From contig NZ_JASBRW010000076.1 of the NCBI RefSeq assembly GCF_030149235.1, positions 62,001 to 126,000 on the forward strand: a DNA stretch of 64,000 nt. The letters run 5' to 3'. Positions within the stretch are counted from its first letter, which is position 1; every line of letters begins with the position of its first letter. Shown here one piece after another: positions 30,660 to 35,450 of this stretch. The stretch comes from Maricaulis sp. Its GTDB lineage: Bacteria > Pseudomonadota > Alphaproteobacteria > Caulobacterales > Maricaulaceae. The position numbers and the translations under genes were made by a program. The notes under the pieces are model-generated. The model searched no databases, was not told the DNA's origin, and saw only the letters and a list, made by a program, of their open reading frames with translations.

Positions 30660-31319
30660 TCAGAGGCCGGTGAAGACCTGGAACAGCTTCAACAGTGGGC
30701 TGTCATAGCGCAGCTTGCCGCGCGTCAGGGCCAGGCAGATGCACTCTTCGCCCTCATCGATACGAATATCATGTTCGGTATCCGGGCCAGCTTCCTCGAC
30801 ATCGCCACGGGAGTATTGCTGCTCGCCATCATGGAAACTGCCCTTGAGAACCAGAGTTAGCTCGGAGCCGTTATGCCCATGATGCGGGATGGCAACGCCC
30901 GGCTTGGCCTTCAGCAGCCAAAGCTTCTCCTGCTCGGGCCCATCCCAGAGCATGGCTTTCTGCAAGCCAGGGCCGAGAAACTCCCACTTCACGTCCCGTT
31001 CAATGCCCGTCAGGAAGCTCTTGAGCGCTTCCGGCAGGATGATCTCGCTGTCGATATCGTTGGCCGCAAGCGGAGTCGGCGCCGATGCCGGCGCATCCAT
31101 GTCAAAGATATCGTCTGCAGAAAAACTCAATTCGGTTTCGTCGCCGGCGACCATCAAGAGGGCCGCGCCGATACGCTCAAGCTCGGCCACACGCTCACTC
31201 GCGGTGCCGGACAGCTCCAGATGCGACGCAATCAGGACTTCCTCACCGACGCTATCAAGCGATCCGGCGGCATAGTCCATATACCAGGCGTCATCCATCA
31301 TTTGGCCGCGCTCGGTCAT
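30660..31319 (-). CDS. ChrR-like cupin anti-sigma factor with degenerate N-terminal Zn motif
   Basis: MDYAAGSLDSVGEEVLIASHLELSGTASERV; cupin PHHGHNGSELTLVLKGSFHD...DTEHDIRI...ECICLALT; next to ECF sigma. Confidence 0.85.
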   Translation of the reverse strand: MTERGQMMDDAWYMDYAAGSLDSVGEEVLIASHLELSGTASERVAELERIGAALLMVAGDETELSFSADDIFDMDAPASAPTPLAANDIDSEIILPEALKSFLTGIERDVKWEFLGPGLQKAMLWDGPEQEKLWLLKAKPGVAIPHHGHNGSELTLVLKGSFHDGEQQYSRGDVEEAGPDTEHDIRIDEGEECICLALTRGKLRYDSPLLKLFQVFTGL

Positions 31320-31900
31320 TCCTGTTCTCCAATACACACGCGCAGTTTATCCATGGCCAGTCGAATCCGGGATTTGACAGTACCCAGCGGCAAGTCGAGC
31401 TGATCGGCAATATCTCGGTGCGACCGGCCCTCCTTGAACGCGAGATCCACGACAAGACGTTGATCATCGGGCAGCGTAGACAAGGCTTCAATTACAGTTG
31501 AAACGTCCTCGGCCCGCGATACGAGCGCATCCGGGGCCGGGTCATCATTGAGGTGGAAATGCGGATCGTTCTCGTCAAGTTGCTGAGCCCGCGCCGTTTT
31601 CCGGAAATAGTCGATGTGCTGGTTGCGCGCGATCGTGTAAATCCAGGTCGAGGGTGAGGCCTTCGACCGGTCATAGCTTTCCGCGCGACGCCAAATCGTC
31701 AGCATGACGTCTTGCGTCAGGTCATCCGCCTGAGCACCGGACAATCGCCGCTGGACCAGAAATGTCCGGATCCGGGGGGCGAAATGCTGGAAGATTTGGC
31801 GAAAGGCGGCGCGATCACGCTCTTGGCCAACTTGCTCCAGCAAGTCAGACAAATCAGCTGCGCTTAACGCCGTGCCTGGAAAATTGACGGTCGAAGCCAT
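31316..31900 (-). CDS. ECF RNA polymerase sigma factor (RpoE/ECF11-like)
   Basis: DDLTQDVMLTIWRRAESYDRSKASPSTWIYTIARNQHIDYFRK; GRSHRDIADQLDLPLGTVKSRIRLAMDKLR; overlaps anti-sigma start. Confidence 0.93.
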   Translation of the reverse strand: MASTVNFPGTALSAADLSDLLEQVGQERDRAAFRQIFQHFAPRIRTFLVQRRLSGAQADDLTQDVMLTIWRRAESYDRSKASPSTWIYTIARNQHIDYFRKTARAQQLDENDPHFHLNDDPAPDALVSRAEDVSTVIEALSTLPDDQRLVVDLAFKEGRSHRDIADQLDLPLGTVKSRIRLAMDKLRVCIGEQE

Positions 31901-31975: not shown

Positions 31976-32004
31976 AAATACGAATCCATCAGAGAATTGG
32001 ATCA
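31976..32004 (-). promoter_or_regulatory. Putative ECF-sigma (RpoE/ChrR-type) promoter of the sigma operon
   Basis: Minus strand TGATCC (32004-31999), 17-nt spacer, GTATTT (31981-31976). Confidence 0.55.
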
Positions 32005-32019
32005 TCAAAAAAACTAATG

Positions 32020-32048
32020 TGATCCGCCCTGCGTCATAACCCGTAGGA
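32020..32048 (+). promoter_or_regulatory. Putative ECF-sigma promoter of the FAD-oxidoreductase/DUF1365/CFA operon
   Basis: Plus strand TGATCC (32020-32025), 17-nt spacer, GTAGGA (32043-32048), 35 nt before ATG 32084. Confidence 0.6.
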
Positions 32049-32083: not shown

Positions 32084-33451
32084 ATGACGCATTCGACACG
32101 GAAAAGCGTAGCCGTAATCGGCTCGGGCATATCAGGCCTGTCCGCCGCTTGGCGGCTCAGCGAAACGCATGATGTGACCGTGTTCGAGAAGGATGGGCGT
32201 CTTGGCGGACACGCCAACACCCAACACGTTCAGATCGATGGAGCCGATGTCGCGGTTGATACCGGCTTCATCGTCTACAATCCCAAGAATTATCCGAACT
32301 TCACCCCGATGCTCGAGCAGCTCGGGGTCGAGAGCGCGCAGAGCGACATGTCGTTTGCGGCATCGATTGATGATGGCGATTTCGAATACTCGTCCAATTC
32401 TCACGGCCTGTTCGCGCAGAAACGAAACCTGCTGCGTCCGCGCATGTGGATGATGATCTCGGACCTGCTACGCCTCTATCGCGCTGCGCAGGACGGATCA
32501 CTGACCAAGGATCCGCGCTCGCTGGACGAGTTCCTGCGCGAGGAGGGGTATTCCGACATCTTCCGCAATGATCACATCCTGCCGATGTGCGCCGCGATCT
32601 GGTCGTCGCCCGCCGTGCAGATGAAGCAATACCCGGCGCGGACCTTTTTTGAATTCTTCCGCAATCATGGGCTGGTGCAGCTGCGCGACCGTCCCATGTG
32701 GCGCACGGTCCGCGGCGGTAGCCAGAATTACGTCAAACCGCTCAGCGAGGCGATCAAGGGCGAAATTCATTGCGAAGCCGATATCCAACGCATTGACCGG
32801 ACGGTCGATGGCGTACTGGTCTACCTGGCCGGTGAGGAGCCAATGCGGTTCGATGAAGTCGTTCTCGCTTGTCATAGCGACCAGGCGCTCGCCCTGCTCT
32901 CCGACGCTGACGGGCAGGAACGCGAGATCCTCGGCTCCATCGCCTACAAGCCGAATACGGCCGTGCTGCACACCGATACTCGCCTGATGCCGAAACGCCG
33001 CGGTGCCTGGGCCAGCTGGAATTATATCGAGACGCGCGGCGGCGCCGGTCAGAGCGAAATCAGCCTGACCTATTGGATGAACGCGCTGCAGCCGCTCAAT
33101 ACCGAAAAACCGGTCCTGGTCACGCTCAACCCGGACCGCGCACCAGCTCCTGAAACCGTGCTTAAAACTGAGACATACGCCCACCCGGTATTTGATGAAG
33201 CCGCGATTGTCGCACAGCACCGTATGCCGGAGATCCAGGGACGAGGCGGTATCTGGTATTGCGGCGCCTGGATGGGCTCCGGTTTTCATGAAGATGGGCT
33301 CCAGGCCGGCCTCGCTGTTGCCGAGGCGCTTGGCGCACCGATCCGCCCGTGGGGACTGGCCGGCAGCACCTCGCGCATCCCCTGGCCCAACCATGTCGGG
33401 AACAAGCCGGTCTTCGAGCGCCCGCAAACCCTCGGTGTGGCCGCGCAATGA
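32084..33451 (+). CDS. FAD-dependent amine oxidoreductase-like protein of the CFA-synthase cluster
   Basis: VAVIGSGISGLSAAWRLSETHDVTVFEKDGRLGGHANT; ...IWYCGAWMGSGFHEDGLQAGLAVAEAL. Confidence 0.9.
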   Translation: MTHSTRKSVAVIGSGISGLSAAWRLSETHDVTVFEKDGRLGGHANTQHVQIDGADVAVDTGFIVYNPKNYPNFTPMLEQLGVESAQSDMSFAASIDDGDFEYSSNSHGLFAQKRNLLRPRMWMMISDLLRLYRAAQDGSLTKDPRSLDEFLREEGYSDIFRNDHILPMCAAIWSSPAVQMKQYPARTFFEFFRNHGLVQLRDRPMWRTVRGGSQNYVKPLSEAIKGEIHCEADIQRIDRTVDGVLVYLAGEEPMRFDEVVLACHSDQALALLSDADGQEREILGSIAYKPNTAVLHTDTRLMPKRRGAWASWNYIETRGGAGQSEISLTYWMNALQPLNTEKPVLVTLNPDRAPAPETVLKTETYAHPVFDEAAIVAQHRMPEIQGRGGIWYCGAWMGSGFHEDGLQAGLAVAEALGAPIRPWGLAGSTSRIPWPNHVGNKPVFERPQTLGVAAQ

Positions 33452-34218
33452 AGCCGCTTCCGGCTTCCATATATACCGGCGAAGTCGGGCACACACGGCT
33501 ACGCCCGCGTCATCATGCCTTGCGCTACAAAATGTACTCAATCCTGGTCGATATCGACGGCCCGAGCGCACAACCCAAGGCCGGGCCACTTTTTTCGATC
33601 GGCGCCTTTAACGCCATCAGCTTTACCACCCGTGACCATGGCCGCGGTGACGCGGATTTGCGGGTATGGGTTGAGGAGAAGCTGGCAGCCGCAGGGGTGG
33701 AACAATCCCTCGGGCGCATACAGCTGCTCACCGCCCCGCGCACATTCGGCCTCAACTTCAATCCGCTGTCCGTCTACTTCTGCCATGACGTTCGGGATCA
33801 CCTCGTCGGCATGATCTTCGAGGTCAATAATTTTCATTCCGGACGCTGCGCCTATGCCTTTGCCGTGGATGACCCGAAAGCACGCACCCTGCGTTTTTCC
33901 TGTCCGAAGGAATTCTTCGTGTCGCCCTTCAACCCGGTGGATGGGGAGTACAGCTTCCGCCTCGACCGGGATGAAAACCGCTACCGGCTTGGCATCCAAC
34001 TCGTCCGAAATGGGACGATCGAAATGAGCGCGGTGCATTGTGCCGAACGCCAACCGCTCAACGCCAGAACAGTTCTGACCACAAAATTTCAACACCCTTT
34101 CAATACCTTGTCGATTGTTGGTGCAATCCTGATCGAAGCGCTAAAATTGCGCCTGAAAGGACTTGCCACCCACGCCCCCCGGCGCGGAACAATCGATACA
34201 CAATCCCGGAGCCTGTAA
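33448..34218 (+). CDS. DUF1365 family protein
   Basis: SIYTGEVGHTRLRPRHHALRYKMYSILVDID...FNPLSVYFCHD...EVNNFHSGRCAYAF; ATG overlaps previous stop. Confidence 0.9.
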   Translation: MKPLPASIYTGEVGHTRLRPRHHALRYKMYSILVDIDGPSAQPKAGPLFSIGAFNAISFTTRDHGRGDADLRVWVEEKLAAAGVEQSLGRIQLLTAPRTFGLNFNPLSVYFCHDVRDHLVGMIFEVNNFHSGRCAYAFAVDDPKARTLRFSCPKEFFVSPFNPVDGEYSFRLDRDENRYRLGIQLVRNGTIEMSAVHCAERQPLNARTVLTTKFQHPFNTLSIVGAILIEALKLRLKGLATHAPRRGTIDTQSRSL

Positions 34219-35450
34219 TGGACCTGACTTCAGAACACATGCAGGGCGAACCCCGCCAGCCGTCCGCCGGACCGATCGATCGACTTGTCAAATCCTGGCT
34301 CAGCAAGGCCATGGCCCGCGTCGAGGATGTACGCCTGATGGTACAGCTGCCGTCAGGCTATCGCTTTGTCTGCGGACACCCGGATGCGACGCGCGATATT
34401 GAATGGTCGCTGAAGCGCTGGAATGCGGTGATGCGGATCGCGTCGAGCGGCGCGCTGGGCTTTGCCGAAGGCTATATCAATGACGAATGGGATACGCCGG
34501 ACCTGCAGGCTCTGCTGACCACCCTTTCTGCAGAACTCGACAAGATCCAGACGGCTCAGCGCCGCAGCGGACCGAGCCGGCTTCTGGCGCGCCTGAAGCA
34601 CCTGCGCAACGCCAACACCCGCAAGGGCAGCCGCCGCAATATCTCTTTCCATTACGACCTCGGAAACACGTTCTACAGCCATTGGCTGGACGAAACGATG
34701 ACCTATTCCTCGGCCGTATTCGAACAGCTTGACGAACCCCTCGCCGACGCCCAGCGCCGCAAGTATCGCCGTATTTGCGACCAGCTCGAGCTCAAAGAAG
34801 ACCAGACCGTGCTTGAGATCGGTTGCGGCTGGGGCGGTTTTGCTGAAGTCGCAGCCGGCGAATACGGCGCCCGCGTCACCGGTGTAACCCTGTCCAAGGA
34901 ACAGCTCGATTTTGCGCAGCAGCGCATGCTTCGGCTCGGCCTGGCTGACAAGGTTGATCTGCGGCTGCAGGATTACCGCGATATTCCGGAGACCTTTGAC
35001 GCCATCGCCTCGATCGAAATGTTCGAGGCCGTCGGCGAAGAACATTGGCCGATCTATTTCAAGAAGCTTCAGTCCTGCCTGAAACCGGGGGGCAAGGCTG
35101 CGCTGCAGATCATCACCATCCGGGAACAAGATTTCGAGGGTTATCGCCACGCGGTCGACTTCATCCAGAAATACATCTTCCCGGGCGGCATGCTGCCACC
35201 GCCAGTGAAACTGACAGAACTGGCCGGCGAAGCGGGGCTGGAGGAAGACAACGTCTCCATGTTCGCATCTAGCTATGCAGAGACGCTGCGGCGCTGGCAT
35301 GAGGATTTCGATTCCGACTGGGACCGTATCGAACCCCTCGGCTTTGATCAGCGCTTCCGCCGGATCTGGAAATATTATCTGGCTTATTGCGAAGCCGGTT
35401 TCGATACGGGCCGCATCGATGTCGGCCAATTCGTCTACCGCAAACCCTAG
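34218..35450 (+). CDS. cfa: Cyclopropane-fatty-acyl-phospholipid synthase family protein
   Basis: NISFHYDLGNTFYSHWLDETMTYSSAVF; VLEIGCGWGGFAEVAA; SIEMFEAVGEEHWPIYF; KYIFPGGMLPP. Confidence 0.94.
   Translation: MDLTSEHMQGEPRQPSAGPIDRLVKSWLSKAMARVEDVRLMVQLPSGYRFVCGHPDATRDIEWSLKRWNAVMRIASSGALGFAEGYINDEWDTPDLQALLTTLSAELDKIQTAQRRSGPSRLLARLKHLRNANTRKGSRRNISFHYDLGNTFYSHWLDETMTYSSAVFEQLDEPLADAQRRKYRRICDQLELKEDQTVLEIGCGWGGFAEVAAGEYGARVTGVTLSKEQLDFAQQRMLRLGLADKVDLRLQDYRDIPETFDAIASIEMFEAVGEEHWPIYFKKLQSCLKPGGKAALQIITIREQDFEGYRHAVDFIQKYIFPGGMLPPPVKLTELAGEAGLEEDNVSMFASSYAETLRRWHEDFDSDWDRIEPLGFDQRFRRIWKYYLAYCEAGFDTGRIDVGQFVYRKP

What the first reader, a model, noticed from the sequence alone, without database searches (positions are those of the whole stretch)
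31200..31223. ChrR-like anti-sigma factor has lost the N-terminal zinc-site cysteines
Seen: IASHLELSGTASERV where classical ChrR has, from memory, VATHLxLCxxCR. The His remains but CxxC has become SxxA; the expected early N-terminal His is also not seen (MMDDAWYMDYAAGSL). The C-terminal cupin ligands are retained (PHHGHNGSELTL, EHDIRI, ECICLA). Known: in Rhodobacter ChrR the N-terminal Zn site is needed for sigma-E inhibition, and the cupin domain for singlet-oxygen response. Implies a Zn-independent sigma-binding domain or altered release mechanism.
Basis: partly seen in the sequence, partly recalled or inferred. Interest (0 to 1): 0.66.

Follow-up and report, generated by a model that had tools for sequence, protein, structure and literature searches.

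The report
Zinc-free ChrR anti-sigma factor, recurrent loss
In the marine bacterium Maricaulis, the protein that holds back a light-stress switch has lost the zinc clamp thought to be essential for it, yet it keeps its sensor half and its whole gene circuit intact, and the same loss has happened many times in related bacteria.

Summary
The chrR gene (31319..30660, minus) encodes a ChrR-family anti-sigma factor whose N-terminal domain has S37/A40 in place of the CxxC cysteines and Met in place of His6. Only one His (H33) and no Cys remain in that domain. This is not an error or decay. All 18 Maricaulis orthologues with a readable N-terminus lack the site, and the domain evolves under strong constraint and is modelled confidently as the ChrR helical fold. 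The sigma gene, both divergent sigma-E promoters and the furan-fatty-acid operon (ufaD-ufaO-ufaM) are conserved beside it.

It is nearly all-or-none: His6 is kept in 136/136 proteins with CxxC and 5/117 without. The cupin ligands are kept in 269/271. Caulobacteraceae ChrR, almost certainly including the singlet-oxygen-responsive C. crescentus protein, is zinc-less.

Best reading: a working, zinc-independent sigma-binding domain with sensing left to the cupin. Non-zinc anti-sigma domains are already known, so this is a variant, useful as a natural test of what the ChrR zinc does.

The parts
30660..31319 (-). chrR: anti-sigma factor, 219 aa, zinc-less anti-sigma domain plus cupin domain
   Evidence: TIGR02451 136.3 bits against a cut-off of 124.5; Pfam Cupin_7; best PDB match ChrR 2z2s/2q1z
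31152..31319 (-). anti-sigma domain, residues 1-56 (three helices 10-17, 24-36, 38-57)
   Evidence: AlphaFold2 model, block pLDDT about 97 over residues 11-50; dN/dS 0.02-0.10 between six close pairs
31200..31223 (-). degenerate zinc knuckle H33-LEL-S37-GT-A40 (R. sphaeroides H31, C35, C38)
   Evidence: alignment; S37 is the one-residue break before helix 3 in the model
30663..31034 (-). cupin-like domain (residues 96-219), ligands H147, H149, E153, H183, CxC 193/195
31316..31900 (-). ECF sigma factor (rpoE/ECF11-like), 194 aa from the ATG at 31900; 4-nt ATGA overlap with chrR
   Evidence: Sigma70_r2/r4; a sigma gene lies directly upstream in 104/117 zinc-less and 129/136 zinc-site ChrR loci
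31979..32004 (-). sigma-E-type promoter TGATCC-N16-CGTA of rpoE-chrR
   Evidence: same place in 18/18 Maricaulis loci
32020..32045 (+). divergent sigma-E-type promoter TGATCC-N16-CGTA of the ufa operon
32084..33451 (+). ufaD homologue (RSP1091; FAD-dependent methyl-fatty-acyl desaturase)
   Evidence: Pfam Amino_oxidase/NAD_binding_8; gene order and role from PMC7380195
33448..34218 (+). ufaO homologue (RSP1090; DUF1365)
   Evidence: DUF1365, 214 bits; PMC7380195
34218..35450 (+). ufaM homologue (RSP2144; CFA-synthase-like methyltransferase)
   Evidence: CMAS, 289 bits; PMC7380195

Best explanation
This is a functional sigma-E/ChrR singlet-oxygen switch in which the anti-sigma domain folds and binds sigma-E without zinc. 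The knuckle between helices 2 and 3, tied together by zinc in R. sphaeroides, is here closed by ordinary packing: Cys35 is replaced by Ser/Asn at the helix-3 N-cap and Cys38 by Ala. Sensing and release stay with the metal-binding cupin domain and with ChrR breakdown that depends on the adjacent ufaD/ufaO genes. Shown: ligand loss, genus-wide constraint, modelled fold, conserved cupin site, promoters and neighbours, recurrent loss elsewhere. Inferred: sigma binding, absence of metal, the capping role, the singlet-oxygen response.
For: Window domain has 1 His and 0 Cys, so no His/Cys zinc site can form. Loss in 18/18 Maricaulis. dN/dS 0.02-0.10 in the domain, near the cupin's 0.01-0.10. Model mean pLDDT 89, best PDB match the ChrR-sigma-E complex. 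Cupin HHEH in 269/271. Divergent TGATCC-N16-CGTA-type promoters at matching places in 18/18. ufaD and ufaO beside all 32 zinc-less genes with full flanks. At least 8-11 changes on trees built without the ligand columns. Caulobacteraceae ChrR over the NF051881 cut-off lack both Cys; C. vibrioides also passes it, and its system responds to singlet oxygen (PMC6852236). Other anti-sigma domains work without zinc: RseA, RskA; RsiW binds sigma independently of its zinc (PMC7406223).
Against: In R. sphaeroides zinc binding, mapped by single alanine changes at the ligands, is required for inhibition (PMC6852236), so loss needs compensation; no site with convergent compensating change was found in the domain or in sigma. 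No binding, metal or stress data exist for Maricaulis. The model is of ChrR alone, not of the complex. The C. crescentus protein itself could not be read here by name.
Confidence: 0.8

Rival explanations
1. The domain still binds zinc through substitute ligands (H33, E35, His at residue 6 in some species, or acidic residues), so behaviour is unchanged.
For: H33 and E35 are invariant in Maricaulis, and a His at residue 6 occurs in about half of the species. H31 is kept in 79 of 117 zinc-less proteins although the other ligands are gone.
Against: The window protein and two others have only one His and no Cys in the whole domain. In other zinc-less lineages H31 itself is replaced by Gln, Val or others in 38 of 117.
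Confidence: 0.06
2. The anti-sigma domain is degenerate and no longer inhibits sigma; the protein is a relic, or the cupin has taken another job.
For: The ligands needed for inhibition in R. sphaeroides are lost (PMC6852236).
Against: Strong purifying selection on the domain; invariant residues across the genus; 4-nt coupling to sigma; conserved autoregulatory promoter, which would run unchecked without an inhibitor; loss recurs without decay.
Confidence: 0.05
3. Zinc loss changed the trigger: zinc-less ChrR responds to other or additional signals (for example organic hydroperoxide, cadmium, UV-A as in Caulobacter) or has a different release threshold.
For: The C. crescentus system responds rapidly to singlet oxygen and organic hydroperoxides and more slowly to other inducers (PMC6852236), and its ChrR family is zinc-less. 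The zinc site reacts with singlet oxygen in a model peptide (PMC6432622).
Against: The cupin ligands, CxC and ufa genes used for release in R. sphaeroides are kept. R. sphaeroides with the zinc site also responds to organic peroxide (PMC3818230).
Confidence: 0.15

Closest known systems
ChrR of Caulobacteraceae (NCBIfam NF051881; C. crescentus sigma-E/ChrR)
   Same: ChrR family with full cupin ligands, CxxC replaced (RxxT/RxxN/RxxA), His31 kept
   Different: Independent loss with different substitutions; window scores 104 bits, far below the 300-bit cut-off; ufa genes are not next to rpoE-chrR in C. crescentus (PMC3818230)
R. sphaeroides ChrR (PDB 2q1z, 2z2s)
   Same: Two-domain layout, fold, cupin zinc ligands, sigma pairing, ufa regulon
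   Different: Has the HHCC zinc site, which is required for inhibition; the window protein lacks three of four ligands
Parvibaculaceae ChrR (Parvibaculum, Tepidicaulis)
   Same: Zinc-less; groups with Maricaulis, support 94/89; same divergent promoters
   Different: Cys35 replaced mostly by Leu/Val rather than Ser/Asn
Non-zinc class I anti-sigma domains (RseA, RskA) and RsiW
   Same: Bind ECF sigma without needing zinc (PMC7406223)
   Different: From general knowledge: membrane-anchored, no cupin, different sensing

Membership tests
ChrR family anti-sigma-E factor (TIGR02451) | Score over the curated cut-off | tested here: met
   136.3 bits, cut-off 124.5
ChrR family anti-sigma-E factor (TIGR02451) | C-terminal ChrR cupin with HxH..E..H zinc ligands | tested here: met
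   Cupin_7; H147, H149, E153, H183
ChrR family anti-sigma-E factor (TIGR02451) | Encoded directly downstream of an ECF sigma gene under a sigma-E-type promoter | tested here: met
ChrR family anti-sigma-E factor (TIGR02451) | Inhibits its sigma; released by singlet oxygen | not testable with these tools
   needs binding and reporter assays
ZAS (zinc-binding anti-sigma) family | H-x3-C-x2-C plus an upstream His | tested here: not met
   S37 and A40 replace the cysteines, no His6; no Pfam zinc-finger match at the N-terminus
Cadmium/peroxide/UV ChrR equivalog (NF051881, Caulobacter type) | Score over 300 bits | tested here: not met
   104.4 bits

The most novel reading that the evidence does not exclude
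Zinc loss re-tuned the switch: in zinc-less ChrR lineages the anti-sigma domain no longer takes part in sensing, and the inducer range or threshold shifted compared with zinc-site ChrR, so that one protein family holds two natural sensing modes.
Probability: 0.15. Interest if true: 0.7.

Novelty: new variant of a known kind. Interest (0 to 1): 0.48.

Why it matters
A review states that the role of the ChrR N-terminal zinc in the singlet-oxygen response is unknown (PMC6852236), and a chemical study proposes that its oxidation by singlet oxygen takes part in release (PMC6432622). If zinc-less ChrR proteins with intact cupins and regulons still inhibit sigma and respond to singlet oxygen, the zinc is structural and replaceable, and zinc-oxidation models cannot be general. 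The recurrent loss gives many natural pairs for testing this, and shows that annotation by the CxxC motif would miss functional ChrR proteins.

Tried and rejected
Sequencing error: rejected, the loss is genus-wide. Pseudogene: rejected by dN/dS and the conserved circuit. Substitute His/Cys zinc ligands: rejected for the window, one His and no Cys. A backup zinc-site ChrR in the same genome: none found with the protein search (genome about 90% complete). Compensating sites elsewhere in the domain or in sigma by independent pairs: nothing beyond noise. Genome-wide sigma-E sites: the pattern TGATCC-N17-CGTA was a miscount and gave nothing; N16 gave 7 sites, few enough that the five outside this locus may be chance. 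Key papers (Lourenco and Gomes 2009, Campbell 2007, Nam 2013, Greenwell 2011, Dufour 2008, Casas-Pastor 2021) were not held, so whether the Caulobacter loss was noted before could not be checked.

Full report
WHAT IS THERE. The window lies in a Maricaulis genome (G000:C43, 2.76 Mb, 87 contigs, about 90% complete; the named nearest relatives are Maricaulis). On the minus strand an ECF sigma gene (31900..31316) overlaps by four bases a 219-codon gene (31319..30660). The latter passes the curated cut-off of the ChrR family (TIGR02451, 136.3 bits against 124.5), and its best solved relatives are R. sphaeroides ChrR. At 31200-31223 it encodes HLELSGTA where R. sphaeroides has HLSLCDEC. His31 is kept, Cys35 and Cys38 are Ser and Ala, and His6 is Met. 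In the window's N-terminal domain there is one His and no Cys.

IT IS GENUS-WIDE AND CONSTRAINED. All 18 Maricaulis orthologues with an N-terminus have S or N, then A, at the two Cys positions; H33, E35 and A40 are invariant. Between six close pairs dN/dS of the domain is 0.02-0.10, close to the cupin's 0.01-0.10 and below that of the linker wherever it could be computed. AlphaFold2 gives mean pLDDT 89 with block values of about 97 over residues 11-50. Helix 2 ends at 36, residue 37 is a single non-helical residue and helix 3 starts at 38, so S37 sits where a helix N-cap sits. That Ser/Asn/Asp caps helix 3 in place of the zinc thiolate is an inference. Across the wider zinc-less set position 35 is Arg in 35, Ser 25, Asn 20, Leu 11, Cys 10 and Asp 7 of 117, so capping residues are common but not the rule.

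THE CIRCUIT IS INTACT. Divergent promoters TGATCC-N16-CGTA flank the sigma gene in the window (31979-32004 minus, 32020-32045 plus) and at matching positions in 18 of 18 Maricaulis loci, as well as in Parvibaculaceae and zinc-site relatives (two Maricaulis loci have TGATCT on the divergent side). The divergent operon is ufaD (32084-33451), ufaO (33448-34218, DUF1365) and ufaM (34218-35450), the methylated furan fatty acid genes (PMC7380195). In R. sphaeroides RSP_1091/RSP_1090 (ufaD/ufaO) are needed for full singlet-oxygen activation, and RSP_1090 for singlet-oxygen-driven ChrR breakdown (PMC3818230). All 32 zinc-less loci with full 5-kb flanks have ufaD and ufaO beside them.

THE LOSS IS RECURRENT AND NEARLY ALL-OR-NONE. 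ChrR proteins were gathered from Maricaulaceae, Caulobacterales, Alphaproteobacteria and some Gammaproteobacteria. Among 254 distinct proteins, 136 keep CxxC and all 136 also keep His6 and His31; 117 lack it and only 5 keep His6, whereas 79 keep His31. No protein has exactly three of the four ligands. The cupin ligands are HHEH in 269 of 271. The sampling is uneven: the family and order draws over-represent Caulobacterales. In the class-wide draw 17 of 90 loci are zinc-less, in 16 of 61 families. On trees from cupin plus sigma, with the ligand columns left out, the trait needs 15 changes, at least 11 forced by supported branches (FastTree, 233 rows), or 10 changes with at least 8 forced (IQ-TREE, 80 rows). 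With the gammaproteobacterial HHCC proteins as outgroup, loss is the natural direction. Maricaulis groups with Parvibaculaceae (94/89), not with the zinc-site ChrR of other Maricaulaceae, so its operon may have been acquired sideways after the loss.

A WORKING ZINC-LESS CHRR PROBABLY EXISTS ALREADY. Seven checked all exceed the cut-off of the equivalog NF051881, and Caulobacter vibrioides exceeds it too (control line). The C. crescentus system responds rapidly to singlet oxygen and organic hydroperoxides (PMC6852236). The C. crescentus protein was not read by name here, so this link is strong inference, not proof.

HOW IT LIKELY WORKS. Class I anti-sigma domains without zinc are known (RseA, RskA), RsiW binds independently of its zinc, and about 28% of soluble class I anti-sigma factors lack the motif (PMC7406223). 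So the most likely mechanism is the usual ChrR one, with the zinc tie replaced by packing and capping: the domain holds sigma-E, and the cupin plus ufa-dependent proteolysis release it. No specific compensating site was detected. The retention of His31 in two thirds of zinc-less proteins suggests that it has a second, zinc-independent role.

VERDICT. It is filed under the ChrR family but not under ZAS, whose defining motif was tested and not met. It is a variant of a known kind, useful because it turns an open question about the ChrR zinc into a natural experiment. In the open-licence papers reachable here I found no statement that ChrR/ECF11 proteins lose the site repeatedly; subscription papers could not be read.

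Noticed in passing
window 32084-35450 (+): Complete ufaD-ufaO-ufaM furan-fatty-acid operon divergent from rpoE-chrR, with its own sigma-E-type promoter.
   Followed up: partly
L001-L019 against L047-L058, L263: Maricaulis rpoE-chrR groups with Parvibaculaceae, while some other Maricaulaceae genera have zinc-site ChrR (L141, L147, L149, L155): possible horizontal transfer of the whole operon.
   Followed up: partly
L144, L146, L153, L159, L160: Second, zinc-less ChrR copies in other Maricaulaceae genera with no ECF sigma gene found directly upstream: orphan anti-sigma or cupin proteins.
   Followed up: no
L062, L064, L065, L078 against L066: Recent losses within Rhizobiaceae caught part-way (HHNS, HHSS, QHCS), nested beside HHCC proteins; suggests that cysteine loss can precede loss of His6.
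   Followed up: partly
L276, L278, L272 (own genome): Exact TGATCC-N16-CGTA sites 8-31 nt upstream of a SOUL heme-binding protein gene, a DUF6134 gene and a small membrane protein gene: possible further sigma-E targets, though chance is not excluded.
   Followed up: partly
L148, L162, L164: Rare ChrR proteins with changed cupin residues (CxC replaced by VxV; Glu replaced by Asp or Ala).
   Followed up: no
L061, L073: Contigs titled Klebsiella pneumoniae MAG carry gammaproteobacterial ChrR like those of unnamed Gammaproteobacteria (L059, L063); the titles may be wrong.
   Followed up: no
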